From Pirellula sp. (GTDB lineage Bacteria; Planctomycetota; Planctomycetia; Pirellulales; Pirellulaceae): a stretch of DNA of 35,058 nucleotides. Where the stretch lies: contig JALOQZ010000027.1 in NCBI GenBank assembly GCA_025459245.1, positions 1 through 35,058 of the forward strand. The letters run 5' to 3'. The position numbers and the translations under genes were made by a program. Positions 2,463-33,758 of this stretch are shown piece after piece; position 1 is the stretch's first letter, and each line of letters starts with the position of its first letter. Below the pieces are notes generated by a model. That model had not been told where the DNA came from. It did no database searches and saw only the letters and a program-made list of their open reading frames with translations.

Positions 2463-3749
2463 TCAAGGTTGCGAGGAAACGGTCGCTTGCGAAGTCGCTC
2501 TCTGGGGAACCGAGAAAAATGCGAGGATCAGAGCGATGATAAGGATTCCACAAGCGACGGCGAACGGCGCTCCCTGCCAAAACGTCGACCTGCCTGGATG
2601 GACCGACCAAGCGAAAACCGTGGCATAAAGCGACGGACCGATCAGCCCGGCGATTCCCATCATGGAACTATTGGCCCCCGACAATCGACCTTGCTCGGTC
2701 GGTCCCAGTCGGGTGGACATGACCCCATTGATCGATGCTTGAAAAAACCCCATCAACGCAAACAGAATGGTGCAGAGGTAGAATGTGGTTCCGTCGCGTG
2801 CGATAGTGTAAGCCGCAAAACCGAGAATCCCGCCGGTGAGCCCGACAAAGACTAACTTGCGTTCGCCAAATCGCCGTATCGCCGGGCGAATCAACCCTCC
2901 TTGAACAATCATATTCAGAATTCCGACCGTCCCGAGCGACAGCCCGATCTGCCAAGGCTCCCATCCAAAGTGAGTGTCGGTGTACAGGACAAACACGTTC
3001 TGAAACGCAAGGTGCGAGAGTTGGTAAAAGAACAGAATAATCGCCATAGGTAGCAAACCCGGCTTGGATCGGAGCAATTGAAGCGAGCCCAAAGGATTGG
3101 CTCTCTTCCAGCTAAAGGCGCTCCGTTTGTCTTTGGGGAGCGACTCGGGCAAGACGAAGTAGCCGTAAAAACCATTGGCGAGCGTCAATGCGGCCGACGC
3201 CCAAAACGGGAGACGCAAGTCGATGGAGCCGAGCATACCACCGACAGCAGGCCCCAAAACAAAACCGATACCAAACGCTGCACCAAATAATCCGAACGCA
3301 GCCGTTCTTCGCTCGGGGGGAGTGACGTCCGCAAGGTAAGCCTGCGCCGTCGAAAAGCTCGCTGCCGTCATCCCGGTGATGATTCGACCGATGAGCAACC
3401 ATGAAAGATTGGGAGCCAATGCGAGAAGGATGAAATCGAGCCCAAGCCCAAATGTCGAAACCAGCAAAACGGGGCGACGACCAAATCGATCGGAAAGAGC
3501 TCCGATGATCGGAGAACAAAAGAACTGCATCAACGCCCAAAGCGTTCCGAACAAGCCGATATAAAAAGCAGCGATCGACTCATCGCCGCCAACAAGCTCT
3601 TTGATCAGCTTTTGAAGAACCGGAATGATCAACCCCAACGACAAAACGTCGAGGATCACGGTGATCATGATAAACGCGATGGCGGCCTGGCGAGGCGGCT
3701 TGCTTGGAATGCTCGCTGTCGTATCGGGATTGCTTTGAGGATCAGACAT
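2463..3749 (-). CDS. MFS transporter, TetA/TCR-like
   Basis: This is a 428-residue inner-membrane protein with about 12 hydrophobic segments. After a polar 20-residue N-terminus comes a first segment with ITVILDVLSLGLIIPVL. MFS motif A, GALSDRFGRRPVLL, sits at residues 83-96 between segments 2 and 3. GFVLGPAVGG around segment 5 resembles the antiporter motif C of the drug:proton antiporter families. Overall it resembles class B-type tetracycline efflux (TCR/Tet) proteins, but many planctomycete members have unknown substrates, so a resistance role should not be assumed. It starts 12 bases after the upstream isomerase-like gene and is followed at 8 bases by the acetyltransferase. Confidence 0.85.
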   Translation of the reverse strand: MSDPQSNPDTTASIPSKPPRQAAIAFIMITVILDVLSLGLIIPVLQKLIKELVGGDESIAAFYIGLFGTLWALMQFFCSPIIGALSDRFGRRPVLLVSTFGLGLDFILLALAPNLSWLLIGRIITGMTAASFSTAQAYLADVTPPERRTAAFGLFGAAFGIGFVLGPAVGGMLGSIDLRLPFWASAALTLANGFYGYFVLPESLPKDKRSAFSWKRANPLGSLQLLRSKPGLLPMAIILFFYQLSHLAFQNVFVLYTDTHFGWEPWQIGLSLGTVGILNMIVQGGLIRPAIRRFGERKLVFVGLTGGILGFAAYTIARDGTTFYLCTILFALMGFFQASINGVMSTRLGPTEQGRLSGANSSMMGIAGLIGPSLYATVFAWSVHPGRSTFWQGAPFAVACGILIIALILAFFSVPQRATSQATVSSQP

Positions 3750-3761
3750 TCGGTGGTTGGA

Positions 3762-4718
3762 TTAAGGTTGATTCGTAGCCAGCTTGTCTCGAGCGGAGGC
3801 GAGCAGCGAGCGGAAGACTTGTGTCTGCTGCTTCATGGCAGCAACCTTGTCCTCTGGATTGGAGTGGGCCTCGAGCAATACCCATCCTTGATAGTTCGCT
3901 CGCAGCAACAGCGCAAACAGATCGGCGTAGGGATAATCGCCGTCATCGAGCTTGCGCACATGTGTTGTATCTCCCAACCGTGATTTCACCATTCCAAAAT
4001 TGGCCTCGAGCCCCGGTGAAGCCAAATCTTCTTTGTTGCTGTTCCAGCAGACGGCGGCGTTGGGATGGACGGCAACTCGAAAGATATCTCGGATGACTTC
4101 CAATCGACTCGTCTTGGATCCATGCACTTCCAACCGAATTTGTTGGCCATAGCCTTCTCCATACTCAGCGAGTTCCTGCAGCGCCCTGCCGATTTGCTCA
4201 ATTGTTTTCTCTTGCGGAATCCCATTGACGAATGCGTTGGGCTTCACTTTAACCCCGCTACCTCCGCAATCGTGCATCAAGTGAATCAGCTCTTTGACTT
4301 GCTCGATATTCTTTTTCACCACTGCGGGGTCGGCCGCATGAAACTCGCAATTGGATCCATACCCGATCAGCTCGACGCCGCTATCGGCAAACCTTTTCTT
4401 CACATCCGAGCGTTCGGCTTTGCTCAAACTCGGTTCGACCCGATGTTGATGCTCCGTCCTGAGCTCGACTCCTCCCATCTCGGCAGCTTGGCAAGCGGCG
4501 ATAACATCGGAGAGTGTCATATCCTTTCCCCACTGATACGTCACCAACCCAAATTTCAACTCTGCGGCGCCCGAGGAAATAGACGGGATCGCCGGCGATG
4601 CTTGAGTCCAGGACGACGTTCCTAACGTCGCCAGCCCCGCGATCGCAGTCGCACCTCCGGCTAAAAACTGACGACGATTCGAATCCGAAATGGATCGGAG
4701 ATGTAGGAGTGAGGACAT
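3762..4718 (-). CDS. Tat-exported sugar phosphate isomerase/epimerase-like TIM-barrel protein
   Basis: This 318-residue protein belongs to the xylose isomerase-like TIM barrel superfamily (AP endonuclease family 2 fold). A twin-arginine signal is visible: SNRRQFLAGG at residues 13-22, followed by a hydrophobic stretch and an Ala-rich cleavage zone near residue 40. The mature part begins with KFGLVTYQWGKDMTLSDVI, typical of these barrels. Later strands carry the acidic residues usual for metal binding (MGGVELRTEHQHR, IRLEVHGSKT, WVLLEAHSN). Planctomycetes encode many such exported proteins, mostly of undefined substrate. It leads the minus-strand operon ahead of the MFS transporter, suggesting sugar or sugar-derivative processing outside the cytoplasm (inference). 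Confidence 0.85.
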   Translation of the reverse strand: MSSLLHLRSISDSNRRQFLAGGATAIAGLATLGTSSWTQASPAIPSISSGAAELKFGLVTYQWGKDMTLSDVIAACQAAEMGGVELRTEHQHRVEPSLSKAERSDVKKRFADSGVELIGYGSNCEFHAADPAVVKKNIEQVKELIHLMHDCGGSGVKVKPNAFVNGIPQEKTIEQIGRALQELAEYGEGYGQQIRLEVHGSKTSRLEVIRDIFRVAVHPNAAVCWNSNKEDLASPGLEANFGMVKSRLGDTTHVRKLDDGDYPYADLFALLLRANYQGWVLLEAHSNPEDKVAAMKQQTQVFRSLLASARDKLATNQP

Positions 4719-4804
4719 AAAGTGTTGCCTTTTTGGAGACAGGTGTGCCTCAAACGAGACAGCGAATCCAAGGATTACGCGAAAAATCGGGAGTGTTTCA
4801 CCTC

Positions 4805-4852
4805 GGATCCGGGTACAAACCGCATTCGGGGAGTACTATAATACCCGGAACC
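4805..4852. repeat. 11-bp inverted repeat flanking a -10 element
   Basis: The arms GGATCCGGGTA (4805-4815) and TACCCGGAACC (4842-4852) are inverted repeats with one mismatch, separated by 26 bases. They bracket the promoter-like TATAAT at 4837-4842. The spacing suits a dimeric regulator or looping better than a terminator, since no T-run follows. It lies between two divergent operons. Confidence 0.55.
4814..4842 (+). promoter_or_regulatory. Candidate promoter of the DUF1501 operon
   Basis: A perfect TATAAT -10 box lies at 4837-4842. The -35 position, about 17 bases upstream, is poor (TACAAA). A start near 4849 would leave a leader of about 175 bases before ATG 5024. The opposite strand also offers TATAGT and TATTAT in the same place, so a divergent promoter for the minus-strand operon could overlap. 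The whole 4719-5023 gap holds no credible gene. Confidence 0.4.
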
Positions 4853-4860
4853 CCGCGGAG

Positions 4861-4875
4861 GACCTAGCATAGGTC
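4861..4875. repeat. Short perfect hairpin or palindrome in the leader
   Basis: GACCTA (4861-4866) and TAGGTC (4870-4875) form a perfect 6-bp inverted repeat around GCA, just downstream of the presumed transcription start. It could be an operator or a small leader hairpin. Confidence 0.4.
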
Positions 4876-5007
4876 TTCCCATCCTCCCGCCTTAAACTTG
4901 GACTGCCGTCTTCCCCGCACTATCTCGGCCCCTCAGGATGAGGATCGATAGTCCGGAATCAGTGTCGATGGCAAAGTGTTTGGTCAAACCCAATCGATTT
5001 TCTCAAC

Positions 5008-5014
5008 AGGAGAG
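5008..5014 (+). promoter_or_regulatory. Ribosome binding site of the DUF1501 gene
   Basis: AGGAGAG lies 9 bases before ATG 5024 and fixes the start. Clear Shine-Dalgarno sites are not present at every gene in this window, so this one stands out. Confidence 0.65.
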
Positions 5015-5023
5015 TAGGTCATA

Positions 5024-6325
5024 ATGCGATGTCTCGGTAATCCGCTTGGTCGTCGAGGATTTCTCACCGTAGGTGCTCTCGGAGGTTTGGGCCTTTCCAT
5101 GGGCGACCTATTCCGTTTACGAGCCCAAGCGGACCAAAAACACTATGACTTTATCGATGCCAAGGCAGATAGCGTCATCCACATTTTCCTCCCGGGGGGC
5201 ATCGCCCACCAAGAGACCTTCGATCCAAAGCCCTACAGCCCACTCGAGTACCGAGGCGAACTGGGTACGATCAAAACCAAGACGGGCGATGTCTTCTGCG
5301 AAACGCTCCCTCGGCTCGCTTCCCTTTCCGATCGACTCACCGTCATTCGCTCGGTGACTCACGGGGAAGCGGCCCACGAACGGGGTACGCACAACATGTT
5401 CACCGGATACAAGCCATCGCCGGCCTTGGTCTTCCCGAGCTTCGGTTCAGTGATTAGTCACGAATACGGGCCCAAGAATAACTTGCCACCGTATGTGGCG
5501 ATCCCAAATGCAGCAAACGAATACGCGGGAACGGGTTATCTCAGTTCTTCATTCGGTCCATTCAGCCTCGGTGCCGATCCTGCGAACAAAGGGTTCCGCG
5601 TCCAAGATCTCAACTTGCCAAACGGTGTCGACATTCCCCGTTTCGAGCGACGTCGCTCTGCGTTGGAGGCTGTCAACATGCACTTCCAGAAGAAGCAGAA
5701 TGCGGACGCCATCAACGCGATGGACACCTTCTACCAACGCGCTTACTCGCTGATTAGCAGCGAAAAGGCTCGTGAGGCCTTCAACATCGAAGCTGAAGAC
5801 AACGGCCTGCGAGACAAATACGGACGCAATGCAGCAGGTCAACGATTGCTTATGGCCCGACGGCTTGTAGAGGCAGGTGTGCGATTCGTCTCCGTGACCT
5901 ACGGCGGTTGGGACATGCACAACCAGATTTCCGCCGGTATGCGTCGCGATACTCCACCTTTGGATCAAGCCATCGGTACCTTGATCGAAGATTTGGAATC
6001 GCGAGGGCTTTTGTCGCGCACACTGATTATGGTCAGCAGCGAATTCGGTAGAACTCCGAAGATCAACAATGAGGCAGGTCGCGACCACTGGCCCAAGGTC
6101 TTCTCTGTCATGCTCGCCGGTGGGGGTGTGAAGGGTGGATTGGTTTACGGTTCATCCGACGCAACCGCGACCGAGCCTGAATTCGATCCCGTTTCGCCAG
6201 AAGATTTGGCGACCACCATGTATCACTTGCTCGGTATCGTCGCAGACAAGGAGTTGATGGCTCCTGGCGATCGCCCTATCGAAATCTGCGATGGTGGCAA
6301 AGTTCTTACCGACATTCTTGCCTAA
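5024..6325 (+). CDS. DUF1501 domain-containing exported protein
   Basis: This is a 433-residue member of the DUF1501 family, which is related in fold to sulfatases/alkaline phosphatases and is abundant in planctomycetes without a firm function. A Tat-type signal is seen at residues 10-36 (RRGFLTVGALGGLGLSMG). The domain signatures follow: FLPGGIAHQETFDPKP near 53-68, the RSVTHGEAAHERGTHNMFTGY block, VRFVSVTYGGWDMHNQ, and the SSEFGRTPKINNEAGRDHWP block near 340. Most family members have GGPSQ-type residues where this one has GGIAH. It is the first gene of a likely four-gene operon, 9 bases before the PPC gene. The protein is expected outside the cytoplasm; enzymatic activity is not shown. Confidence 0.9.
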   Translation: MRCLGNPLGRRGFLTVGALGGLGLSMGDLFRLRAQADQKHYDFIDAKADSVIHIFLPGGIAHQETFDPKPYSPLEYRGELGTIKTKTGDVFCETLPRLASLSDRLTVIRSVTHGEAAHERGTHNMFTGYKPSPALVFPSFGSVISHEYGPKNNLPPYVAIPNAANEYAGTGYLSSSFGPFSLGADPANKGFRVQDLNLPNGVDIPRFERRRSALEAVNMHFQKKQNADAINAMDTFYQRAYSLISSEKAREAFNIEAEDNGLRDKYGRNAAGQRLLMARRLVEAGVRFVSVTYGGWDMHNQISAGMRRDTPPLDQAIGTLIEDLESRGLLSRTLIMVSSEFGRTPKINNEAGRDHWPKVFSVMLAGGGVKGGLVYGSSDATATEPEFDPVSPEDLATTMYHLLGIVADKELMAPGDRPIEICDGGKVLTDILA

Positions 6326-6334
6326 TCGGTCTTC

Positions 6335-8779
6335 ATGGACTCCACGATGAAAATGAATCTTTGGCGCAATCTATTTCTAGGACTGGGATTCGCGTCGGCG
6401 GGGGCTTTGTGCACCTCGCCGACCCATGCGAGTCACCCGGACGCGAACGTTTTATCGCTCCCAGGTATCCAACGCGGCACATCCGCCGAAGTGACCATCT
6501 CGGGAGCACGACTCGGGGACGCCAAGTCGCTGCTGTTTTACTCGCCAGGCCTAACGGCTACGAATATTACCAAGGTGGATGCGAACGTTATCAAAGCGAC
6601 GATCTCCGCCGACGCTAACGTCACACCTGACTTGCATCCGTTCCGCGTGATCACCGACACAGGTATCAGCAATTTGCGTCTGTTCAATGTTTCGGCGATG
6701 CCAAGCGTCGCAGAAGCAGAACCGAACAACGAATTTGCTAAGCCTCAGCCTATCCCGGTGAACTCAACCATCGATGGCGTCGTGCTAAGCGAAGATGTCG
6801 ATTACTTTGAAGTCGAACTAAAACAGGGACAGACTTTGCATGTCGAGATGGAAGGTCTTCGTCATGCGTATCTGAACGATTTCTTTGATCCGTTTGTTGC
6901 TATTTACGACGACAAACGATTCGAGATTGCATCGAGCGATGATTCGGTGTTTCTACAGCAAGACTGCTTGGCCTCGATCGTTGCTCCTCGCGACGGGAAA
7001 TACGTTATTGAAGTCCGCGAGAGCAGCTTCGGCGGAAACGACCGGATGAAGTACCGACTCCACATTGGAGGATTTCCTCGCCCGGTCGCGATGGTTCCCA
7101 GCGGAGGTCGTCCAGGCGAAAAGCTCGAGGTGACTTGCATCGACAATCTTGGCAACACATGGAAGGAAACATTTCAACTTCCGAGCGAGCCAAACGAGGC
7201 GTTCAAAGTTTGGTCCCAAAAAGACGGCCTCATCGCTCCTTCGCCCAACTTTCTTCGCGTCGTGGATGTTCCCAACGTTTTGGAATCGGAGCCCAACGAG
7301 GACCATAACAAGATCGAGATCGCCAGCCAAGTGCCCGCCGCTTTCAATGGGATTCTCGAATCCGAGAAAGATAGGGACTTCTGGGTCTTCGAAGCGAAGA
7401 AAGACCAGCAATTGGAGGTTCGCGTTCATGCTCGCAATCCGATGCGATCGCAAGTCGATCCCGTCTTGCAGATCTGGAAAGTAGGAGGCGGCGCATTGGC
7501 AGGAAACGATGACACTGGTGGCCCCGATAGCTACCTGCAGTTCAAGGTTCCTGCGGATGGTAAGTATGCGGTCTGCGTTTACGACCACTTGGGCCGCTTT
7601 GGTAAGCACTTCGCATACCGTGCAGAAGTCTTGCTGCAGAGCCCGGCGATCGATGTCTCGATTACCGAGCAAGAACGTTATGTTGCCCAAACCGTTGAAG
7701 TGCCACGAGGCGGTCGCATGGCAGTCGTCGTCAATGTAGGGCGACGAGCGATCGGCGGAGAGGCAACGATCGAAGCATTGGATTTGCCACCCGGGTTGAC
7801 TCATGTTGAAACGAAATGCGATGCGGATCTCGGCAACATCCAAATGCTTTTCAAAGCCGATGCGAACGCGGCTAATGCGGCGAAGATCGTCGACTTCATC
7901 GCTTCGATCCAAGCTTCTCCAGAACAGAAGATTGTTGGAAAGCTCAAGCAACGATCCATGTTGGTGAGGGGCCAGAACAACGTCGATGTCTGGGGACAAA
8001 CCGATCATCGATTGCCCGTAGCACTGATCGATCCGGCTCCGTTTGATATCGAAGTCGTCCAGCCTCAAGTTCCCTTGGTTCGAAATGGCTCTCTTCCGTT
8101 GACCATCAACATCAAACGCAATCCAGGATTCGACAAACCCGTCAATATAAGATTGCTAAACCCGCCCCCAGGTGTGGGTGCTTCTACGGTAACTATCCCC
8201 GGGGACAAATCCACCATCGACATGCCTTTGACCGCGAATGGCGGAGCAGCGATTCGCAAATGGCCATTGTTGGCAATCGCGACAACCGACATCGGTTATG
8301 GTCCGATTGTTTTGTCCAGCGAGTTCTTTCATATCGATGTGACCGAGCCCCTCTTTGAATTCAAGTTCGCGAAAACAATGGCAGAGCAAGGGAAACCTGC
8401 GGATGTAATTGTAGGCGCGAAACTGAAGAAACCTGTCGAGGGGAAGGTAGAGATTGAAATCCTAGGAATTCCACCAGGAACAACCGCAACGGCTCCAAAG
8501 CAGGAGCTGACTCCGGACAAGGAGCGGCTTGCATTCACTCTTCAGATCCCTGCGGAAACACGTGCCGGGAACTACAAGACAATCGTTTATCGCGGGACCG
8601 TAACCACCGATAAAGGTGTGATCACGCAAACGAATGGAAACTCCGAAATCCAGATCGACGTTCCGATTGCACCGCCCGCAACTGCCGCTGCGGCGACCAC
8701 TGCCGCCGCGACACCTGCTCCACCAGCGGACAAACCGCTTACGAGGTTGGAGCAGCTCAAACAACAACGCGGCAGGTAG
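6335..8779 (+). CDS. Exported PPC-domain protein with two pre-peptidase C-terminal domains
   Basis: This is an 814-residue secreted protein. A signal peptide covers about residues 7-33 (NLFLGLGFASAGALC). Residues 38-120 look like an IPT/TIG-type beta domain (SLPGIQRGTSAEVTISG). Two PPC-like beta domains follow, each opened by the typical E-P-N motif: AEAEPNNEF at 126-134 and LESEPNEDHN at 316-325, each ending in a GKY(V/A) strand. The C-terminal half is further beta sandwich-like sequence, then an Ala/Thr/Pro-rich linker and a basic tail (LEQLKQQRGR). No catalytic motif was recognised; PPC domains usually serve binding or secretion. It lies 9 bases after DUF1501 and is probably co-transcribed. 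ATG 6353 is an alternative start that would shorten the n-region. Confidence 0.85.
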   Translation: MDSTMKMNLWRNLFLGLGFASAGALCTSPTHASHPDANVLSLPGIQRGTSAEVTISGARLGDAKSLLFYSPGLTATNITKVDANVIKATISADANVTPDLHPFRVITDTGISNLRLFNVSAMPSVAEAEPNNEFAKPQPIPVNSTIDGVVLSEDVDYFEVELKQGQTLHVEMEGLRHAYLNDFFDPFVAIYDDKRFEIASSDDSVFLQQDCLASIVAPRDGKYVIEVRESSFGGNDRMKYRLHIGGFPRPVAMVPSGGRPGEKLEVTCIDNLGNTWKETFQLPSEPNEAFKVWSQKDGLIAPSPNFLRVVDVPNVLESEPNEDHNKIEIASQVPAAFNGILESEKDRDFWVFEAKKDQQLEVRVHARNPMRSQVDPVLQIWKVGGGALAGNDDTGGPDSYLQFKVPADGKYAVCVYDHLGRFGKHFAYRAEVLLQSPAIDVSITEQERYVAQTVEVPRGGRMAVVVNVGRRAIGGEATIEALDLPPGLTHVETKCDADLGNIQMLFKADANAANAAKIVDFIASIQASPEQKIVGKLKQRSMLVRGQNNVDVWGQTDHRLPVALIDPAPFDIEVVQPQVPLVRNGSLPLTINIKRNPGFDKPVNIRLLNPPPGVGASTVTIPGDKSTIDMPLTANGGAAIRKWPLLAIATTDIGYGPIVLSSEFFHIDVTEPLFEFKFAKTMAEQGKPADVIVGAKLKKPVEGKVEIEILGIPPGTTATAPKQELTPDKERLAFTLQIPAETRAGNYKTIVYRGTVTTDKGVITQTNGNSEIQIDVPIAPPATAAAATTAAATPAPPADKPLTRLEQLKQQRGR

Positions 8780-8819
8780 TGCGATCGCCTGATTTGGCCA
8801 AAACATTGAATCCAGCTAC

Positions 8820-8848
8820 GAGATCTTGTCCATTGGCGGTGAGATCTT
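8820..8848. repeat. Two GAGATCTT direct repeats 21 bp apart
   Basis: GAGATCTT occurs at 8820-8827 and 8841-8848, a period of 21 bases or two DNA turns. Each contains the palindrome AGATCT. They lie in the 138-base gap before the DUF1549/DUF1553 gene, where a regulator could bind the same DNA face twice. Confidence 0.4.
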
Positions 8849-8917
8849 ACACAAGCGAGGGAGATATCCCTGGCTCACTAACATTAAGCAGTTGTTTACC
8901 TTTAGGCTCGTAAACCT

Positions 8918-11452
<2,535 letters not shown>

Positions 11453-11468
11453 TTTGATGCACAGCAAC

Positions 11469-13796
11469 ATGAAGAAGCGTCTGTTTTTCGTCACTACTTT
11501 CATTGCAATCGGCTGCACTACGTCTTTGGCGCAAGAGCCAGCAAAGATAACCTATGACGACCATATTAAGCCGATCTTGCGCGAGCATTGCACCTCGTGT
11601 CATAATGCCAACGACAAGAAGAGCGGCCTGGCTTTAGACTCCTATCAAGCGTTGATGGCGGGTGGGAGTGGCGGCGAGGTCGTCGTAGAAGGGGACTTGG
11701 ATTCCTCTCGTTTGTACGCGTTGACAGCGCACAAAGAACAGCCTTACATGCCCCCGAACCAAGACATGATCGCCCAAGCCAAGGTCGATCTGCTCAAGAC
11801 TTGGATCGAGCAAGGGATGCCTGAAAACAGCGGCTCGGAAATCAAGAAACCCAAGGCGAGCGCGATGGCTCTGTCGGTAAAGATAGGGAGGCCCGAAGGC
11901 GCCCCTCCTATGCCGACAACCGTACTGAAACAGACTCCATTCGCCACCCAGCGTGCTGCGACGACATCGGCAATTGCTGCCAGTCCATGGTCGCCTCTGG
12001 TCGCGGTCGGTGGACAAATGCAAGTTTCGCTATATCACAGTGAAACCGGCAAACTGCTGGGTATCCTACCTTTCCCTGAAGGGGAGCCTCAGTCGATCAC
12101 CTTCTCTCGCGACGGTAAGCTGATCCTGATCGGTGGCGGTAAACATAGCCACTCAGGGTACGCTGCACTCTACGAAATTGAGACGGGGAATCGGATCGCT
12201 CGCGTAGGTGATGAACTGGACATTGTTTTGTCTGCGGACATCAATGATAACAACCAGCTTATCGCACTGGCCGGTCCACAAAAGCTTATCCGCGTCTACG
12301 ACACTCTCAGCGGTGAATTGAAATACGAGCAAAAGAAACACACCGATTGGGTCTACGCGGTTCGATTCAGTCCCGATGGTTTGCTACTTGCGTCGGCGGA
12401 CCGAAGCGCTGGGCTGGTCGTGTGGGAAGCTGACTCGGGACGATTGTACTTGGACCTGCAAGGTCACAAGGGAGAGATACGCTCTCTCGCATGGCGTCCG
12501 GACTCCGCGGCCCTCATCAGCGCTTCCATGGACGGCACGCTGAAAATGTGGGAAATGAACGAAGGAAAAGTGATCAAGTCGTGGGACGCGCATGGCGGCG
12601 GTGCAATGGCTATCGACGTTTGCAACGACGGCACCATGGTTTCTACAGGCCGCGATAACAAGGTCAAGGTTTGGGACATCGCTGGCAATGCCGCAGGGGA
12701 GATGCCCGCACTCGTTGAAGCAGGGCATGAAGTTGCTATCACCGTCGATGGAAAACAGATCGCTGCGGGCGATTGGGCCGGAAACGTTCGGCTATGGCAG
12801 AGAGCAAATCCAAAGGACGAGAGAAGCATTCCGGCCAATCCCCAACCTCTTGAAAATTTGTTGGCCGCAGCCCAAACAGAACTGCAACAAGCTACCTCAA
12901 AGCAAACCGAACTCGGAAATGATTATGCGGCCAAGAGCTCGCAAATCACAGCCATCCAACAGCAGCTCACCGAATTGCAATCGCAGCTGACCAAAACCGA
13001 AGAGCAACTCAAAGCGTCAGCCGAAAAGCAAACGCAGCTCAAGCCAACCTTCGAGTCGCTATCAGCTTTGTTCAAAACAAAAACCGAGGAGCTACAAAGC
13101 CTTCGCGCTCAAGTCGCTCCAAAACAGAAACTGATTGAAGTCGCAAGTGAGAACAAAAAGAAGCTGGACGAAGAAGCCAGCGTTCTCACAAAGCAGAAAT
13201 CCGAGCCGGGTGCGGACGTTCCATCGATCGAGGGCAAGCTGCAGGCAACGCAACTGCAGATCGCTATTCAGGTCGCTGCATTGACGCAGATCCAAGAAGA
13301 GGTTGCTCCGCTCGCAGGTCAGCTTGTAGCACGAGAACAAGAGATGTCAGAGCTTCAACCGAAGTTCGAAGCTACCAACAAAGATTGGATGGAAACGTCA
13401 GCCTCGGTGACTCAGCTCACGGAAATGCGAAATGGGCTTGCCCCACGCGTTGAGTCGACCACCGCTGCACTCAAGGCGGCTAGCGACGCCGCAGCCGCTG
13501 CCAAAGCGCAAGTGGATTCGATCGCTGCCCAGGTGGCCGCGATGCAGGCGAGGGTGGCGGAACTCCAAGCCGATCTTCAAGCGTTCAACAATCGACCAGC
13601 GGAACTGGCAAACAAAAAGACCGCGATCGAACAGTCGCTCGCCGCCGTTCAGCAACAGATTCCTGCTGCCGAGTCGTCAATAACAGAGACCAAGACTCAG
13701 GCCGATGCCCTCGCCGCAGAGATTGGAAAGCTGGAAATGCAATTGGCCGAGGGCTGTAACGAACGACATGAACGCAAAGCAGGAGTCGCTTGGTAA
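11469..13796 (+). CDS. Exported c-heme/WD40/coiled-coil protein, frameshifted near its 3' end
   Basis: This exported multi-domain protein starts at MKKRLFF (ATG 11469); ATG 11457 is a nearby alternative. The signal peptide ends at about residue 22 (TTSLAQ). A planctomycete cytochrome-type domain follows, with CTSCHN at 41-46, the heme motif of PSCyt1 (an MPP segment near 94 may supply the distal Met). WD40-type repeats fill about residues 150-455, with clear units such as GHKGEIRSLAWRPD and DGTLKMWEM. From about 465 to the end is a long coiled coil rich in Gln, Ala, Glu and Lys. The frame ends at 13796 after an odd CNERHERKAGVAW tail. Removing one base near 13767 would join NER directly to MNAKQESLGK and extend the coil to 13890, giving 806 residues. 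A protein-protein scaffold with a heme site is the likely role. Confidence 0.85.
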   Translation: MKKRLFFVTTFIAIGCTTSLAQEPAKITYDDHIKPILREHCTSCHNANDKKSGLALDSYQALMAGGSGGEVVVEGDLDSSRLYALTAHKEQPYMPPNQDMIAQAKVDLLKTWIEQGMPENSGSEIKKPKASAMALSVKIGRPEGAPPMPTTVLKQTPFATQRAATTSAIAASPWSPLVAVGGQMQVSLYHSETGKLLGILPFPEGEPQSITFSRDGKLILIGGGKHSHSGYAALYEIETGNRIARVGDELDIVLSADINDNNQLIALAGPQKLIRVYDTLSGELKYEQKKHTDWVYAVRFSPDGLLLASADRSAGLVVWEADSGRLYLDLQGHKGEIRSLAWRPDSAALISASMDGTLKMWEMNEGKVIKSWDAHGGGAMAIDVCNDGTMVSTGRDNKVKVWDIAGNAAGEMPALVEAGHEVAITVDGKQIAAGDWAGNVRLWQRANPKDERSIPANPQPLENLLAAAQTELQQATSKQTELGNDYAAKSSQITAIQQQLTELQSQLTKTEEQLKASAEKQTQLKPTFESLSALFKTKTEELQSLRAQVAPKQKLIEVASENKKKLDEEASVLTKQKSEPGADVPSIEGKLQATQLQIAIQVAALTQIQEEVAPLAGQLVAREQEMSELQPKFEATNKDWMETSASVTQLTEMRNGLAPRVESTTAALKAASDAAAAAKAQVDSIAAQVAAMQARVAELQADLQAFNNRPAELANKKTAIEQSLAAVQQQIPAAESSITETKTQADALAAEIGKLEMQLAEGCNERHERKAGVAW

Positions 13797-13890
13797 GTTA
13801 AAGGATCAAGCTTCCCAACTGGAGTCCGATGCGGCCGCCTCCGCCGCCCAACTAGAGTTGTTCCAACAGGCTTTCGGCAAAAAGCAATAA
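13768..13890 (+). pseudogene. Out-of-frame C-terminal tail of the coiled-coil gene
   Basis: The +1 frame reads MNAKQESLGKLKDQASQL and continues as an Ala/Gln-rich helix to FGKKQ and a stop at 13888-13890. The composition and heptad pattern match the preceding coiled coil exactly. With no Shine-Dalgarno site it is best read as the true C-terminus of the upstream gene, displaced by one extra base (for example C13767). Confidence 0.65.
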
Positions 13891-13893
13891 TTG

Positions 13894-14709
13894 ATGCCCC
13901 CACATGCGATTAAGAATCAAGGGCCGATGGGAACCTTTTGTTTCCACCGGCCCTTTTTAATGCTCTCCGCGCTCGCAGCCATTATTCTGATTCCCTTAGA
14001 GAGCAATCGAGCTGGTGGCGAGCAACCTAAATGGCGACGAATCAGTGCCGCACCAGATCCGGATGCAGAAGGACCTGCCGAAATCTCCTTGAAATCACCC
14101 GAGCATCATGCGAGGGAAGCACGGTTTCTCGCTGCGATGAACACGAACGCTTGGACCATGCTACCTGACACTCAAACGGGAGAAACCCCGGGATATGTGG
14201 TGGACGGTTATGCAGATGTGAAAGGCTGGGCTTTCACCGGAACGCGGTTGGTGAGCCCGCCCGAACAAGGGTATTGGACGGTTTGGCAAGAAAGCGATGG
14301 GCGAATTCGAATCGAGTCAGCTGCACCGGAACTAATAGAAGATCGCACCAAAGTTAAATGGGCGATCGCTGGATTTGGCGGTATTCTTAAAAATAGCAAA
14401 AAGATCGTGAAGCCGAGCAAGGTGTTGCACCCGAGAACAGCTTTGGGAGTTTCGCATGAAGGGAAACGAATGGTTTGGACGGTCGTCGATGGACGCCAGC
14501 CAAAAGTTAGCGAGGGTGTCAGTGAGGAAGAACTGGCCGAACTGATGCTGGAGTCGGGCTGCGAGGACGCAATCAACTTGGATGGAGGTGGTAGCTCGAT
14601 CCTTTTAATGACCAGCGAAAAGGGACAATTGCGAATTGCGAATCGGCCATCGGGGCTTCTACCACGCCCCGTCCCTGTGATGCTAGGGATTCCAGCGCCG
14701 AAGCCATAG
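13894..14709 (+). CDS. Exported phosphodiester glycosidase (NAGPA/DUF2233-like) family protein
   Basis: This protein belongs to the phosphodiester glycosidase family (the domain of the mammalian uncovering enzyme NAGPA and of bacterial exopolysaccharide proteins), which cleaves or handles sugar-1-phosphodiester links. The diagnostic C-terminal blocks are present: HPRTALGVS, then VWTVVDGRQP, then SEGVSEEELAELMLESGCEDAINLDGGGSSIL, with the NLDGGGSS signature. A hydrophobic signal segment (FLMLSALAAIILIPL) lies near the N-terminus. The start is uncertain: ATG 13894, 13927 and 13960 are all in frame, and a strong terminator-like hairpin covers 13919-13958. ATG 13927 gives the most normal signal peptide; 13960 lies just after the T-run. 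Its 3' end overlaps asnB convergently by 27 bases. Substrate is unknown. Confidence 0.8.
   Translation: MPPHAIKNQGPMGTFCFHRPFLMLSALAAIILIPLESNRAGGEQPKWRRISAAPDPDAEGPAEISLKSPEHHAREARFLAAMNTNAWTMLPDTQTGETPGYVVDGYADVKGWAFTGTRLVSPPEQGYWTVWQESDGRIRIESAAPELIEDRTKVKWAIAGFGGILKNSKKIVKPSKVLHPRTALGVSHEGKRMVWTVVDGRQPKVSEGVSEEELAELMLESGCEDAINLDGGGSSILLMTSEKGQLRIANRPSGLLPRPVPVMLGIPAPKP
13919..13958 (+). terminator. Intrinsic terminator after the coiled-coil gene
   Basis: The arms AAGGGCCGATGG (13919-13930) and CCACCGGCCCTT (13944-13955) pair with a single A-C mismatch around a 13-base loop, and T13954-13958 follow. This is a strong GC-rich hairpin with a T-run, 28 bases after the restored stop at 13890. 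It overlaps the possible 5' coding end of the NAGPA-like gene. Confidence 0.75.
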
Positions 14710-16605
14710 CTCGAAGGTCAGTAAGTTCCAGAGCCTGTAGGCTTGGTTCTCTCGTCCCGACATATGGGCATCGACGAGCGATCGGATGGTATCCTCGCGA
14801 AAGAACTGATGACATTTTGTGTCGGCAGATAATAGCGCATCATAGGTGCGGTCTCGAAGTGATGTTCGAAACCACTTGGCAATCGGGACCCCAAACCCCA
14901 TCTTTGGACGATTCCATATCGCGGCAGGCAAAACATCCGCAAAGGTCTCGCGAAGTAAATACTTGCCAATGCGACCACGCAATTTGAATTGACTGGGGAG
15001 CGATACGGCCCATTCGATGAGCCGATAGTCCAGAAGAGGTTGTCTAGCTTCGAGGGAATGAGCCATCGAAGCGATATCGACTTTGGTCATCAAGTCGCAT
15101 GGCATGTATGTCTGCAGATCAGCCGATGTCGCGCAGCTCACCAAATCACGCTTACCGGCAGCACGCCAAGCATTTCGCAGAAAGTCCACCGGGTCTCGAT
15201 CGGGCAGCTCGGGCACAAAATCATCTCGAAACAGCTCCAGCCGTTGAGCTTCACCGAAAATCTGAATCCAATTCATATACCGATCTACCGGCCCCTGCCC
15301 AAGAGCTTCGCAAAAACGTCGGACTCTTCTCAGAAGCGAACGTCGTGCGGTGGAGTCGGGCAAGCGTTGCAGAATCCCAGAGTTTTGAATCCACTTCACC
15401 GGAAACCATCGCTGCATTCGCTGGCTGAGCACCAGTGCGCGATAGCGTTCGTATCCACCAAAGAGCTCATCCCCGCCGTCGCCGCTTAGTGCTACTGTTA
15501 CATGACGACGTGTCAGTTCCGAAAGATACCAAGTGGGAACTGCGGATGAATCGCTAAAGGGCTCGTCGTACTGGTAGGAAAGTTTGTCAACGATATCCAG
15601 CGCATCGGGCGTTACCTCAAAACGTTGATGCGTTGTACCCACATGTTCGGCGACCTGTTGCGCGAATTGCGTTTCATCAAAGTCTGCCTCGGAGAACCCG
15701 ATCGAAAAAGTTTGGATCGGTTGCGAAAGTTCTCGCTGAGCTAGTGCGACAACAAGCGAAGAATCGATTCCCCCAGATAAAAATGCTCCAACGGGTACAT
15801 CGCTTCGCAATCGCAAGCGAATGGAGTCCGAGAGAAGCTCTTTCAGTTGTGCTTTGGCATCGGATAGAGTGATCTTTCTTTCGAAAGCCCAGTCGATAGC
15901 CCAATAGTTGGCAACTTGGAGCTGACCATGTTCGAACACGGCGCAGCAGCCCGGCTCAAGTTTGCGGATGCCTTTGTAGATCGTATGGGGATGCGGGATG
16001 TATTGGTAAGTCAAATAGAGGTCGATGCTACCCGGATCGATCTCGCGACGAATCGATGGGACTTCCAGTAAACTCTTAAGCTCACTGGCGAAGTAAAGAG
16101 AACCATTTTGAATGGTGTAAAAGAGGGGCTTCTTACCCATCCGATCCCGAGCGAGGATCAATCGATCTCTTTTGGAATCCCAAATGGCGATCGCAAACAT
16201 CCCATTGAGGTGTTCAAAGCATTGCAACCCCAAGTCTTCGTAAAGGTGAACAATCGTTTCGGTGTCGGATTGAGTTTGGAACCGATGCCCCGCCCCTTCG
16301 AGACGATGACGCAATTCGCGGTAGTTGTAGATCTCACCGTTGAAGACGATTTGAACCGACCCGTCTTCATTGCCGAGAGGCTGATGGCCCGTCGATAGGT
16401 CGATGATCGAGAGCCGTCGAAATCCCAGAGCGACTCCATGTCGAGCTTTCGAATCGGTATGAAGATGAATGGATTCCGCCGGAGCGATCCAAGCCCCCTC
16501 GTCGTCTGGCCCGCGATGGGCCAGTGCATCGGTCATACGTCGAAGGGTTTCTTTGTCGAGCTCATCGGAGCCGAATGGCCAGACGCCTCCTGCGATGCCA
16601 CACAT
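14683..16605 (-). CDS. asnB: Asparagine synthetase (glutamine-hydrolysing)
   Basis: This is a class II glutamine amidotransferase/asparagine synthetase of 640 residues. It hydrolyses glutamine in an N-terminal Ntn domain and uses the ammonia to amidate an ATP-activated carboxylate. Cys2 of MCGIAGG is the nucleophile. RLSIIDLSTGHQP at 64-76 and FNGEIYNY at 88-95 line the glutaminase site. The synthetase domain has the PP-loop SGGIDSS at 277-283 and the ALSGDGGDELFGGYERY block. The family also includes paralogues acting in surface glycan or exopolysaccharide synthesis, so a role other than free asparagine synthesis is possible. It starts 48 bases after the floA stop on the same strand and ends inside the convergent NAGPA-like gene. 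Confidence 0.93.
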   Translation of the reverse strand: MCGIAGGVWPFGSDELDKETLRRMTDALAHRGPDDEGAWIAPAESIHLHTDSKARHGVALGFRRLSIIDLSTGHQPLGNEDGSVQIVFNGEIYNYRELRHRLEGAGHRFQTQSDTETIVHLYEDLGLQCFEHLNGMFAIAIWDSKRDRLILARDRMGKKPLFYTIQNGSLYFASELKSLLEVPSIRREIDPGSIDLYLTYQYIPHPHTIYKGIRKLEPGCCAVFEHGQLQVANYWAIDWAFERKITLSDAKAQLKELLSDSIRLRLRSDVPVGAFLSGGIDSSLVVALAQRELSQPIQTFSIGFSEADFDETQFAQQVAEHVGTTHQRFEVTPDALDIVDKLSYQYDEPFSDSSAVPTWYLSELTRRHVTVALSGDGGDELFGGYERYRALVLSQRMQRWFPVKWIQNSGILQRLPDSTARRSLLRRVRRFCEALGQGPVDRYMNWIQIFGEAQRLELFRDDFVPELPDRDPVDFLRNAWRAAGKRDLVSCATSADLQTYMPCDLMTKVDIASMAHSLEARQPLLDYRLIEWAVSLPSQFKLRGRIGKYLLRETFADVLPAAIWNRPKMGFGVPIAKWFRTSLRDRTYDALLSADTKCHQFFREDTIRSLVDAHMSGRENQAYRLWNLLTFELWLRRWNP

Positions 16606-16653: not shown

Positions 16654-17637
16654 CTAGCTGGCAGCCTGGAAATGCCCCGCGATGAAGGCCTTTGCCATGG
16701 CTTTGGGAACCTCGGCCTCAGCCAACACAAGATTGGATCGGTTCTCAGCAACCTTCGCCTTCATGACTTGCTCCTGCGCAATCGCTTCCGCGCGACGTTG
16801 TTCGGCTTGAGCTCTCGCCATCCGCACGTCCGCCTCCGCTTGGTCGGCACGGAGACGAGCGCCAATGTTCTGTCCCACTTCGATATGAGCGATGTCGATC
16901 GAAACGATGGTAAACGCAGTCTGATTATCCAAGCCACGCTTCAAGACGGTTCGCGTGATCAAGTTGGGATTCTCGAGAACGACCAAATGGTTTTCCGAGG
17001 AGCCAATCGAGCTGATGATGCTTTCACCGACGCGTGCAATCACCGTTTCTTCTGTGGCGCCACCAATCAACTGAGCCAGGTTTGTTCGAACGGTCACTCT
17101 CGCCTTGACTTTGAGTTCGATTCCATTCTTTGCAATCGCCGACAGAAACCCATTGCCGCTGTGCCGCGGATCTGGGCAGTCGATAACACGCGGATGCACC
17201 GAAGTCTTCACCGCATCGAGGACATCGCGTCCCGCAAGATCAATTGCAGCAGCTCGGTCAAAGTCGAGATCGATTCCAGCTCTCTGGGCGGCGATGATCG
17301 CGTTGATCACATTCATCACGTTGCCTTCGGCCAAGTAATGCGCCTCGAGGTGCTGGGTTGTAATCCCAGTCCGGCGGCTCGTATCAAGCCCCGCTTGCGA
17401 AGCCATGATGATAGCGTTCACGATGACGTGCGGGCGGACCTGTCGAAGATACATTCCGACCAAGCTGAGCATGGTAACATCGGCGCCGCTCGTCTTCGCT
17501 TGAAGCCACAAACTGCCAAAATTCCAGAAGATGACCAACGCGATCAAGCCCACGACGAAGGCGCCGATAGCCAGCCCAATCATGAGGATGCTTCTAAAGT
17601 CCAATTGGATGTTTTGAGCGAGGAGCAAGAAGTCCAT
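16654..17637 (-). CDS. floA: Flotillin-like membrane scaffold protein FloA
   Basis: This is a 327-residue FloA (YqfA/UPF0365) homologue, near the usual family length of about 330. A membrane-embedded hydrophobic segment covers about residues 17-38 ([21 protein letters not shown]). The family block [22 protein letters not shown] is present around residues 54-76, then the SPFH-type beta-rich part ([31 protein letters not shown]). A C-terminal Ala/Glu/Arg-rich coiled coil ([17 protein letters not shown]) mediates oligomerisation. It organises membrane microdomains. No NfeD-like partner gene lies beside it here, unlike the common arrangement in other bacteria. A 423-base gap lies upstream; asnB follows downstream. 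Confidence 0.93.
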
Positions 17638-18060
17638 GAAGCGGTCCGCGATATGATCGTGAATGAAGGATAGATGGGTCGAGAACTACGGTTTTAAGCC
17701 AGACAAGTCAAAAGCTCGGCTGGCTAGCGGCATCGGCAGCATGCAGGTGAATTCGTTGGGCGATCCACCTGGAGCGTCGTTACGATCGCTACCGCCCGAT
17801 TATTTTGTCGCTATTGGCTCTGTCAGTATAGCACGGAATTCGCAGCCGGAAGGAATAGGCGGTAGATCGAATGGCGGCGTGTTTTCGAACCGATATCGGC
17901 AATTCCGCACGGCTGCCCATTTTTGGCACTACAATGAAAGCCCGCTCCGGACACTGGACAGCTTGCTGGGGCGTTCCCACCCTATTTCCAACGCATTCCT
18001 ACCGTTTTCCCACCTCAATCTTTTTTCCATCTGTTTCTTGCAGAGGAGCATTGAATCATC
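17638..18060. other. Divergent 423-base intergenic region
   Basis: This gap separates floA (-) from the Gfo/Idh/MocA gene (+). Several open frames cross it, but none has a start signal, recognisable residues or a sensible composition. On the minus strand a TATACT -10-like element occurs near 17825-17835 with only a weak -35 match. AGAGGAG at 18042-18048 is the likely ribosome site for GTG 18061, at a rather long 12-base spacing. I see no RNA gene or repeat here. Confidence 0.4.
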
Positions 18061-32117: not shown

Positions 32118-33758
32118 ATGAAGCAAATTTGGAATTCATTCGAAATCGGCTCTCATCGTATGAGCTGGACAATGCTTACATTAGGTTGGCTAACGCTTGG
32201 TTTGGCATTTCCCTGCGTATTCCACACGCGAGCCATGGCTGCAGAATTGCCAAACATTGTTTATGTCCTGGCGGATGATCTGGGGTACGGCGATCTCGGA
32301 AGCTACAACCCCGATTCTAAGATCCCTACTCCGAGGCTTGATCAACTGGCTCGAGATGGGATGCGATTCACCGATGCGCATTCCCCATCCTCCGTCTGTT
32401 CACCTACTCGCTATGCGCTGCTCACGGGACGATACGCATGGCGCACCCGGCTCCAACGCAATGTCCTCGGACCGTGGGACAAACCTCTCATCGCTCCCGA
32501 TCGATTGACCGTCGGCAAATTACTTCAAAAACACGGCTATGAAACGGCTTGCATCGGCAAGTGGCATTTGGGTCAAAACTACATCACCAAAGATGGCAAA
32601 CCTCCGATGGGAGGTGTCAAAAACGCGCTGAGCAATGTCGACTTCACACAACCGATCGGGGAAGGCCCTGTCTCGAGAGGCTTTGATCATTACTTCGGCA
32701 CGATTGTGCCCAACTACCCCCCTTATTGCTTCATCGAAAACGATCGCACAATCGGTATCCCCTCGCTGCTGGCCAAGGGCGGTAACTTCAATATCCCCGG
32801 CCCTATGGTTCCTGATTGGAAACTGGAAGAAATCCTTCCTCAGCTCACGTCGCATGCAGTGAAGTGGATCGAGGATAGGTCGCATTCCAAGAGACCGTTT
32901 TTTCTCTACTTTCCTTTGACTTCGCCGCATTACCCCGTCGTGCCATCAAGCGAGTTCGTCGGAAAGACCGAGGCCGGTGCCTACGGCGACTTTGTCTTTC
33001 AAACTGACTGGTGTGTTGGGCAAGTTCTCGATGCGTTGGAGCGAGCGGGCTTATCGGATAACACGCTCGTGATCTTCACCAGCGACAATGGTTCGGAAGT
33101 TACGGGCGAAGTGAAACCAGGTGTTTATGATCGCGTTCAGCAGTATGGACATCGCAGCTCCGGCGAACTTCGCGGTGCGAAGAGGGATGCTTGGGAGGGA
33201 GGGCATCGCGTTCCATTCATCGCTCGATGGCCGGGCAAAATTCCGGACGGCGAAGTATGCGATGAAACGATCTGTCACGTTGATTTCATGGCGACCGTGG
33301 CAGAGATCTTAGGTGAGGCATTACCCGATAATTCCGCAGAGGATAGCGTGAGCATCCTCCCCGCACTGCTAAATCGAACTCGAATTGGCACCATTCGAGA
33401 GGCAACCGTCCATCACAGCGCGAGAGGCAAGTTTGCTATTCGTCGCGGGGACTGGGTCCTAATCGATGCCCCGACTGGGGACGACAACGCTGCCAATGGA
33501 GAGCCCCAATGGCTCAAAGCGGAGAGACAATACACGCCGCACAATTTGAAAGGGGAACTCTACAATGTCCGTGAAGATCGTGCACAACGCTATAACCTGT
33601 ATGCAGAAAAGCCTGTGCTCGTTGAGGAATTGAAAACACTTCTTGAAAAGTACATCCGAGAGGGACGCAGCACTCCAGGAACTCCACAACGCAACGATGT
33701 GGAAGTACAGCCATTCTCCTCGCAACCCGCTCCCGCCAAACCCAACACTGCCCCATGA
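32118..33758 (+). CDS. Exported sulfatase (FGly type)
   Basis: This 546-residue arylsulfatase-type enzyme hydrolyses a sulfate ester, probably on a polysaccharide, outside the cytoplasm. The signal segment is TMLTLGWLTLGLAF, with cleavage near TRAMAAE (37-43). ATG 32160 is a shorter alternative start. The metal-binding opening is YVLADDLGYGDLGSY (Asp53-Asp54). The formylglycine motif is Cys94-Ser-Pro-Thr-Arg98, followed by ALLTGRYAWRT. The second family signature is IGKWHLGQ, and FTSDNGSE supplies the later metal ligands. The cysteine-type motif needs a formylglycine-generating enzyme, not seen in this window. It sits divergent from the ATPase/nagA operon and 104 bases before a second sulfatase. 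Confidence 0.93.
   Translation: MKQIWNSFEIGSHRMSWTMLTLGWLTLGLAFPCVFHTRAMAAELPNIVYVLADDLGYGDLGSYNPDSKIPTPRLDQLARDGMRFTDAHSPSSVCSPTRYALLTGRYAWRTRLQRNVLGPWDKPLIAPDRLTVGKLLQKHGYETACIGKWHLGQNYITKDGKPPMGGVKNALSNVDFTQPIGEGPVSRGFDHYFGTIVPNYPPYCFIENDRTIGIPSLLAKGGNFNIPGPMVPDWKLEEILPQLTSHAVKWIEDRSHSKRPFFLYFPLTSPHYPVVPSSEFVGKTEAGAYGDFVFQTDWCVGQVLDALERAGLSDNTLVIFTSDNGSEVTGEVKPGVYDRVQQYGHRSSGELRGAKRDAWEGGHRVPFIARWPGKIPDGEVCDETICHVDFMATVAEILGEALPDNSAEDSVSILPALLNRTRIGTIREATVHHSARGKFAIRRGDWVLIDAPTGDDNAANGEPQWLKAERQYTPHNLKGELYNVREDRAQRYNLYAEKPVLVEELKTLLEKYIREGRSTPGTPQRNDVEVQPFSSQPAPAKPNTAP

What the first reader, a model, noticed from the sequence alone, without database searches (positions are those of the whole stretch)
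5024..13890. Four exported proteins forming a heme-motif cassette of unknown function
DUF1501, a double-PPC protein, a DUF1549/DUF1553 protein and a cytochrome/WD40/coiled-coil protein lie in one direction with close spacing and a terminator at the end. All have export signals, two have C-x-x-C-H type motifs, and none has a recognised catalytic core. The family set is known in planctomycetes, but I know of no assigned role. A surface or periplasmic complex joining a scaffold, a binding protein and a heme protein is plausible.
Basis: partly seen in the sequence, partly recalled or inferred. Interest (0 to 1): 0.58.

Follow-up and report, generated by a model that had tools for sequence, protein, structure and literature searches.

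The report
Conserved planctomycete four-protein heme cassette
Four neighbouring genes for exported proteins, two of them with heme-attachment motifs, travel together as one unit across planctomycete bacteria and most likely build one redox machine outside the cytoplasm whose job nobody has yet determined.

Summary
In detail: four exported-protein genes (DUF1501; double PPC; PSCyt2-PSD1; PSCyt1-WD40-coiled coil) lie head to tail and end at a strong hairpin plus T-run. Gene 4 carries a frame break near its 3' end.

The linkage is real and old. Of 80 named planctomycete loci, all 55 with at least 8 kb downstream keep the four genes in order. Around 38 loci no further family recurs. Members are fused elsewhere (PPC with PSCyt2-PSD1; PSCyt1-WD40 with PSCyt2-PSD1), and three genomes hold a diverged copy of the four-gene unit. 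This DUF1501 belongs to one clade without any of 35 own-genome paralogues.

"No catalytic core" is too strong. DUF1501 looks like an alkaline-phosphatase/sulfatase-superfamily protein with a conserved D-x-H/E/H set; a His sits where the nucleophile is expected. Its partner PSD1 is a distant DUF1800 relative, and DUF1800 sits beside DUF1501 in 29 of 30 loci.

Best reading: an extracytoplasmic redox complex, a metal hydrolase-like enzyme working with a diheme protein, fed by a cytochrome and held by a PPC scaffold. Substrate unknown. A DUF1501 module is already described in PVC bacteria without a function.

The parts
5024..6325 (+). Gene 1: DUF1501 protein, 433 aa; alkaline-phosphatase-superfamily-like fold; H118, D297, H299, R343, H355 kept in every aligned row, D67 and E340 in nearly every one
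5048..5065 (+). Twin-arginine motif GRRGFL (residues 9-14); R10 R11 kept in 138 of 138 ortholog-like rows with letters there
   Evidence: TatC in genome
6335..8779 (+). Gene 2: secreted protein with two PPC domains, 814 aa, Pro/Ala-rich tail
8732..8776 (+). Conserved C-terminal peptide KPLTRLEQLKQQRGR of gene 2, possible docking peptide
   Evidence: no function tested
8918..11452 (+). Gene 3: Ig-like stretches (by PDB profile match) + C-x4-C-H cytochrome-like region + PSCyt2 (DUF1549) + PSD1 (DUF1553), 844 aa
9419..9439 (+). C-x4-C-H motif CNTGSCH (residues 168-174) of gene 3
   Evidence: 101 of 101 orthologs
10466..10480 (+). CxxCH motif CAQCH (residues 517-521) of gene 3, in PSCyt2
   Evidence: 66 of 66; 101 of 101
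11457..13796 (+). Gene 4: PSCyt1 + WD40 propeller + coiled coil (ATG 11457 or 11469); frame closes early at 13796
11589..11603 (+). CxxCH motif CTSCH of gene 4 (PSCyt1)
   Evidence: 90 of 96 distinct orthologs
13797..13890 (+). Continuation of the gene 4 coiled-coil coding pattern in another frame, to TAA 13888-13890
13920..13959 (+). Terminator-like hairpin followed by U-run
   Evidence: z -4.5

Best explanation
The cassette encodes the parts of one extracytoplasmic, heme-containing enzyme complex. Shown: four genes kept as a unit, fused members, conserved heme-type motifs, a fold and profile match of DUF1501 to the alkaline phosphatase/sulfatase superfamily. Inferred: gene 1 (DUF1501) is a Tat-exported metalloenzyme of that fold whose classic nucleophile position is a His; gene 3 is its partner, a helical protein related to DUF1800 that in planctomycetes carries two c-type heme sites; gene 4 is a His/Met-type c-type cytochrome on a WD40 propeller and coiled coil that passes electrons to or from gene 3; gene 2 is a secreted scaffold that holds gene 3 through its C-terminal region. 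Together they would carry out a redox-coupled change of a cell-envelope substrate. The substrate and direction of electron flow are not known.
For: Order D-PPC-PSD-WD in 55 of 55 named loci with at least 8 kb downstream; PPC 70 of 71, PSD 59 of 60 where room allows. Around 38 loci no family recurs in 6 or more outside the cassette span. Fusions: PPC + PSCyt2-PSD1 in one 1697-aa frame without the inner signal peptide (L153); PSCyt1 + WD40 + PSCyt2 + PSD1 in one 1732-aa frame beside a DUF1501 gene of the window's own genome (L197). A diverged four-gene copy in the same order in three genomes: L242, L243, L246. Heme motifs: 101 of 101 gene 3 orthologs; gene 4 orthologs 90 of 96, and 87 of 96 with a following MPP; a cytochrome c assembly gene is present. 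DUF1501: all 21 Foldseek matches at E <= 0.001 and the 50 VIA rows shown are alkaline-phosphatase-superfamily chains (a few by recall, not by title), top Z 10.5, rmsd 4.7, 255 aligned. Profile test independent of the model: DUF1501 against 22 sulfatase rows from the loci 92.2% local (E 5.9e-7; E340-F341 on the sulfatase SDNG motif), 71.9% global; controls against PSD1 and DUF1800 0.6% or less. Sulfatase profile hits a DUF1501 paralogue at E 6.7e-4, below cut-off. PSD1-DUF1800: hhalign 98.8% global, 96.7% local; control 0.5% or less; DUF1501 beside DUF1800 29 of 30.
Against: The DUF1501 model is poor (mean pLDDT 53.8), its Foldseek TM-scores are low (TMq 0.25-0.37 in the rows shown), and the ligand assignment rests on sequence motifs, partly recalled, not on coordinates. 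Heme binding, complex formation and co-transcription are untested. The cassette can be split: in L048, L135 and L137 gene 3 is missing beside gene 1 although it exists elsewhere in those genomes; L155, L158 and L170 lack a detectable gene 4. It is dispensable: G035 has no DUF1501 or gene 3 match at E <= 1e-60 and G027 has no close ortholog. DUF1800, the alternative partner, shows CxxCH in its matched region in 0 of 30 planctomycete loci, so heme is not needed for the DUF1501 pairing as such. The window's own gene 4 has a frame break.
Confidence: 0.5

Rival explanations
1. An electron-transfer conduit: the heme proteins pass electrons across the periplasm or envelope to an external acceptor, and DUF1501 and PPC are structural.
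For: Three c-type heme motifs across two proteins; the cited DUF1501 module is associated with PVC cell organisation.
Against: No further gene family, so no porin, recurs around 38 loci (porins were not searched for as such); few heme motifs per protein; DUF1501 keeps an enzyme-like residue set; DUF1800, the other DUF1501 partner, has CxxCH in 0 of 30.
Confidence: 0.15
2. A polysaccharide-processing unit: DUF1501 removes or transfers ester groups on glycans and the heme proteins oxidise them.
For: Sulfatase-like fold and profile; PSCyt genes next to sulfatases and carrying carbohydrate-binding domains in Verrucomicrobia (PMC5615132, section 13 read); DUF1501-DUF1800 next to bacterial chitin synthase (PMC5122149, passages); LamG domain in one paralogue of the own genome (L202).
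Against: The four proteins have no carbohydrate-binding domain among the Pfam matches shown (gene 4 shows 25 of 37 families) and no further family recurs nearby. In the own genome only three DUF1501 loci (contigs C290, C306, C416) have a sulfatase within 2 kb, about what 42 over-cut-off sulfatase matches in 4.5 Mb would give by my rough count.
Confidence: 0.2
3. The CxxCH-type motifs bind no heme; they are disulfide or metal sites, and the cassette is a structural surface assembly.
For: Pfam calls PSCyt2 and PSD1 domains of unknown function; the well predicted PSCyt2-PSD1 model has no PDB match at E <= 0.001, cytochromes included (the C-x4-C-H region was not in that model).
Against: PSCyt1 of gene 4 has cytochrome layout with CxxCH and a following MPP in 87 of 96; PSCyt2 CxxCH invariant in 66 of 66 diverse rows; PSCyt1 domains of paralogues also match Cytochrome_CBB3 weakly.
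Confidence: 0.12

Closest known systems
'DUF1501 module' of compartmentalised PVC bacteria (Kamneva et al. 2012; paper not held, known here through passages in PMC4452313, PMC5122149, PMC4960237)
   Same: DUF1501-centred gene clusters of PVC bacteria, several members with signal peptides, function unknown
   Different: Cannot be compared gene by gene here; the orthologous four-gene unit, fusions and DUF1800 relation were not in the passages seen
PSCyt2-PSD1 / DUF1501 gene pairs (both present in 26 of 38 own-genome stretches fetched)
   Same: PSCyt2-PSD1 next to DUF1501; four intermediate paralogues also have C-x4-C-H
   Different: PSD comes first in 24 of these 26; PSCyt1 lies inside the PSD protein in 4 of 6 scanned. 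The cassette runs DUF1501, PPC, PSD, WD, with PSCyt1 in gene 4
DUF1800-DUF1501 gene pairs (planctomycetes; other bacteria, PMC5122149)
   Same: PSD1 is a profile-level relative of DUF1800 and both sit beside DUF1501
   Different: DUF1800 has no CxxCH in the matched region (0 of 30); PPC or WD40 partners were not tested
Alkaline phosphatase / sulfatase / NPP superfamily
   Same: Fold and profile match of DUF1501
   Different: His at the recalled nucleophile position; SEFG where the sulfatase has SDNG

Membership tests
DUF1501 (PF07394) | Profile match over curated cut-off, full length | tested here: met
   376.9 bits, cut-off 27, profile 1-390 of 390
PSCyt2-PSD1 proteins (PF07583, PF07587) | Both domains over cut-off in one protein | tested here: met
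   171 and 157.3 bits
c-type cytochromes | CxxCH or CxnCH motif conserved in orthologs | tested here: met
   gene 3 101 of 101 for both motifs; gene 4 90 of 96
c-type cytochromes | Covalently bound heme | not testable with these tools
   needs heme stain or spectra
c-type cytochromes | Maturation machinery in the genome | tested here: met
   one Cytochrom_C_asm match, 69.8 bits over cut-off 29.9; other maturation genes not searched
Alkaline phosphatase superfamily (for DUF1501) | Alkaline phosphatase fold / sequence relation | tested here: met
   Foldseek best E 2.2e-5, VIA Z 10.5, but model mean pLDDT 53.8; profile match to sulfatases 92.2%, controls 0.6% or less
Alkaline phosphatase superfamily (for DUF1501) | Ser/Thr/Cys nucleophile and two full metal sites | tested here: inconclusive
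   H118 at the position expected from recalled motifs; D297, H299, H355 would fit one site; no coordinates to check
DUF1800 superfamily (for PSD1) | Profile-profile similarity above an unrelated control | tested here: met
   98.8%/96.7% against 0.5% or less for the control
DUF1800 (PF08811) | Match over Pfam cut-off | tested here: not met
   20 bits against 26.1
Tat substrates (gene 1) | RRxFL motif and TatC in the genome | tested here: met
   R10 R11 in 138 of 138; TatC 193.5 bits
Kamneva et al. 2012 DUF1501 module | Same gene set and order | not tested
   paper not held
Porin-cytochrome conduits | Porin gene linked to the cytochrome genes | tested here: inconclusive
   No family beyond the four recurs around 38 loci; the porin family itself was not searched for

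The most novel reading that the evidence does not exclude
DUF1501 with its DUF1800/PSD1 partner is an undescribed two-protein enzyme class: an alkaline-phosphatase-fold metalloprotein with His at the nucleophile position that works with a helical partner without a close PDB match; planctomycetes wired this pair to c-type hemes and kept one four-gene version as a near-universal part of their envelope biology.
Probability: 0.22. Interest if true: 0.8.

Novelty: new member of a known kind. Interest (0 to 1): 0.52.

Why it matters
Planctomycetes carry dozens of DUF1501 and PSCyt/PSD genes with no assigned role. This work singles out one orthologous, slowly evolving four-gene unit from about 40 DUF1501 matches in the genome (in seven genomes of other families of the order DUF1501 is 69-75% identical and the flotillin FloA 65-69%), names its likely enzyme and the residues to mutate, and ties the PVC module to DUF1800-DUF1501 pairs. 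That makes an open question testable in a planctomycete with genetic tools.

Tried and rejected

Sulfatase neighbourhood as support for a glycan role: no clear excess in the own genome by rough count.

PDB by sequence: the DUF1501 profile gives only E 0.01 or worse. The gene 3 profile hits teneurin-like proteins (E 2.8e-14, 3 stretches) and Ig-like domains (about 8e-4), best stretches in the N-terminal part; nothing convincing for PSCyt2-PSD1. PSCyt2-PSD1 model (pLDDT 91.9): no PDB match at E <= 0.001; the best VIA rows are phycobilisome linker domains, Z 5.1, rmsd 4.4-4.5, 106-115 aligned, below the level the tool calls meaningful.

The first count of the cassette by whole ORFs missed PPC or PSD in several high-GC loci because stop-to-stop frames are long; redone by tblastn. 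L047 counts as a gene 4 miss although its ORF matches at 499 bits. An idea of a DUF1800-DUF1501 fusion (L223) was dropped: two overlapping frames.

Comparison with P. limnophila essential genes: the passages seen name no DUF1501; supplements not open. T. immobilis proteome paper: no DUF1501, DUF1549 or DUF1553 in the main text; PMC5394234: no hit for the terms; PMC10540074: no DUF1501. Rfam on the window: nothing at gathering level. Promoter scan of 3000-16000: one minus-strand site only.

Not-in-print statements rest.

Full report
WHAT IS THERE. Gene 1 is a 433-aa DUF1501 protein with a twin-arginine motif. Gene 2 has two PPC domains and a Pro/Ala-rich tail. Gene 3 is PSCyt2-PSD1 with a C-x4-C-H motif at 168-174 and CxxCH at 517-521. 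Gene 4 has PSCyt1 with CxxCH, a WD40 propeller and a coiled coil. A hairpin with a U-run follows at 13920-13959 (z -4.5). Gene 4 closes at 13796 because of a frame break; the coiled-coil coding pattern goes on in another frame to 13890. Against the nearest relative (G006) the alignment shows gaps of 21 and 17 bases there. An assembly error and a real change cannot be told apart.

THE GENOME. The window is one contig of a 4.5-Mb, 82% complete genome. The closest named records with this gene are Pirellula MAGs. The genome holds 40 DUF1501 and 40 PSD1 matches, a few of them pieces of one gene. So the families are common; the question is whether this cassette is special.

THE CASSETTE IS A UNIT. 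All 55 loci of the 80 with at least 8 kb downstream keep the order DUF1501, PPC, PSCyt2-PSD1, WD40; PPC follows in 70 of 71 and PSCyt2-PSD1 in 59 of 60 with room; the misses are L084 and L103. These are the closest relatives, so the set is biased. The two sets overlap in part. Misses: L047 (gene 4 found by another method), L048, L135, L137, L155, L158, L170. Where gene 3 is missing beside gene 1 (L048, L135, L137), it is kept elsewhere in the genome at 54-60% identity, in G032 and G144 still near gene 4.

HOW OLD AND HOW CONSERVED. In a phylum sample of 294 genomes, 45 have a DUF1501 match of 460 bits or more and the next best genome has 367; all 21 rows marked own, family, order or class are among the 45, and the 20 non-matching rows shown are all 'same phylum' (216 more not shown). 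Among 40 genomes (39 relatives and the own), 35 have the PPC protein at over 480 bits. Of the other five, G004 shows genes 3 and 4 at a contig end plus a diverged four-gene copy, G031 has the genes on two contigs, G026 has only a diverged version, G027 and G035 lack a close one. DUF1501 is 82-98% identical in the genus and 69-75% in seven genomes of other families of the order, 63% in G031; FloA from the same window is 82-97% in the genus and 65-69% in those seven genomes, 63-70% over the order. In a tree of 112 DUF1501 sequences (188 filtered at 85%), the 73 scoring 500 bits or more form one clade (support 0.79; 0.95 without one member) that holds none of 35 own-genome paralogues.

FUSIONS AND A DIVERGED COPY. 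L153 (another class) has PPC and PSCyt2-PSD1 in one 1697-aa frame with the inner signal peptide gone. In the own genome, L197 has PSCyt1, WD40, PSCyt2 and PSD1 in one 1732-aa frame next to DUF1501. Three genomes hold a diverged copy of the four genes in the same order (L242, L243, L246; identity to the window's proteins PPC 25-28%, PSD 41-49%, DUF1501 51-54%). Around 38 loci no other family recurs in 6 or more loci outside the cassette span; the other repeated clusters are ORFs that overlap the four genes. Together these argue for one machine.

DUF1501 AS AN ENZYME. The AlphaFold model from 17 close sequences is poor (pLDDT 53.8, pTM 0.63). Still, all 21 Foldseek matches at E <= 0.001 are YejM/PbgA, LtaS-type or sulfatase chains (some named 'global domain' in the PDB and known to me as PbgA; TM-scores low), and the 50 VIA rows shown are alkaline-phosphatase-superfamily chains (top Z 10.5, rmsd 4.7, 255 aligned; 6s21 by recall). 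An independent profile test agrees: DUF1501 against 22 sulfatase rows from the loci gives 92.2% (E 5.9e-7, columns 309-409) and places E340-F341 on the sulfatase SDNG motif; controls against PSD1 and DUF1800 give 0.6% or less. The Pfam Sulfatase profile also touches a DUF1501 paralogue (E 6.7e-4, below cut-off), and the DUF1501 profile weakly touches an arylsulfatase (E 0.57). H118, D297, H299, R343 and H355 are kept in every aligned row of 140 ortholog-like, 15 intermediate and 33-36 (of 46) distant sequences; E340 in all but one, D67 in all but two (redundant rows not removed). In DUF1800-linked DUF1501s the C-terminal half keeps D297, H299, E340, R343 (29 of 29 aligned) and H355 (28 of 28); the N-terminal half did not align. 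From the recalled sulfatase/NPP motif (CxPxRxxLLTG) H118 falls on the nucleophile position. That is inference.

THE PARTNER. PSD1 is a distant relative of DUF1800: weak Pfam hit (20 bits, below cut-off), hhalign 98.8% global and 96.7% local against 0.5% or less for a control. DUF1501 lies beside DUF1800 in 29 of 30 planctomycete loci examined, and DUF1501 and DUF1800 are found in the same two of 14 control genomes, PSD1 in none. DUF1800 has CxxCH in its matched region in 0 of 30. So the pair looks like the core and heme an addition. The PSCyt2-PSD1 model is confident (pLDDT 91.9) and has no PDB match at E <= 0.001.

HEME. Gene 3: both motifs in 101 of 101 distinct orthologs (5 short ones dropped), and a His in an H[ST]GG setting 40-75 residues on in 98. 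Gene 4: CxxCH in 90 of 96, and 87 of 96 with MPP after it. PSCyt2 CxxCH is invariant in 66 of 66 diverse rows. A cytochrome c assembly gene and TatC are present. Heme itself is not shown.

PPC TAIL. [ST]RLE[QK]L[RK] lies in the last 70 residues of 96 of 133 PPC-matching ORFs (paralogues and cut ORFs included); [ST]RLEQLR occurs in none of the other ORFs of the 11,629. In the L153 fusion this peptide leads straight into gene 3, which hints at a docking role.

WHAT IS KNOWN. Papers seen as passages: PMC4452313, PMC5122149 and PMC4960237 cite a conserved DUF1501 module of PVC bacteria (Kamneva 2012, not held; I recall that its abstract suggests membrane targeting and electron transport). PMC5615132 section 13, read, reports conserved PSCyt gene arrangements with no known function. 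PMC2754498 (passage) names a PSD1/PSCyt2 gene under an ECF sigma factor in the stress response of Rhodopirellula baltica. PMC5587647 (passages) notes DUF1501 near WD40 genes. None of the passages seen assigns a function (searches).

VERDICT. A real, conserved member of the known DUF1501 module, most likely one extracytoplasmic redox enzyme complex; complex formation and the heme are likely, the chemistry is open.

Noticed in passing
13740-13890: Gene 4 coiled coil has a frame break; aligned to G006 the window shows gaps of 21 and 17 bases there. Assembly error or real change unresolved.
   Followed up: partly
13960-14709: Phosphodiester glycosidase (NAGPA) gene just after the terminator; found next to the cassette in G006 but not reported in the other loci (for the family).
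   Followed up: partly
L242 4668-12360, L243 7263-14891, L246 3914-11544: A diverged four-gene cassette in the same order in three genomes.
   Followed up: partly
L197 334-5529: Own-genome single frame with PSCyt1, WD40, PSCyt2 and PSD1, beside DUF1501.
   Followed up: partly
G030:C1:5301769-5304111: PPC ortholog with one TAG inside the match.
   Followed up: no
16654-17637: Flotillin FloA gene with a 333-aa antisense ORF (16672-17673) without any Pfam match at E <= 0.001.
   Followed up: no
11213-11449: PSD1 C-terminal helices resemble phycobilisome linker domains weakly (Z 2-5).
   Followed up: no
32118-33758 and 33947-34999: Two sulfatase genes in the same window, 18 kb from the cassette.
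   Followed up: no
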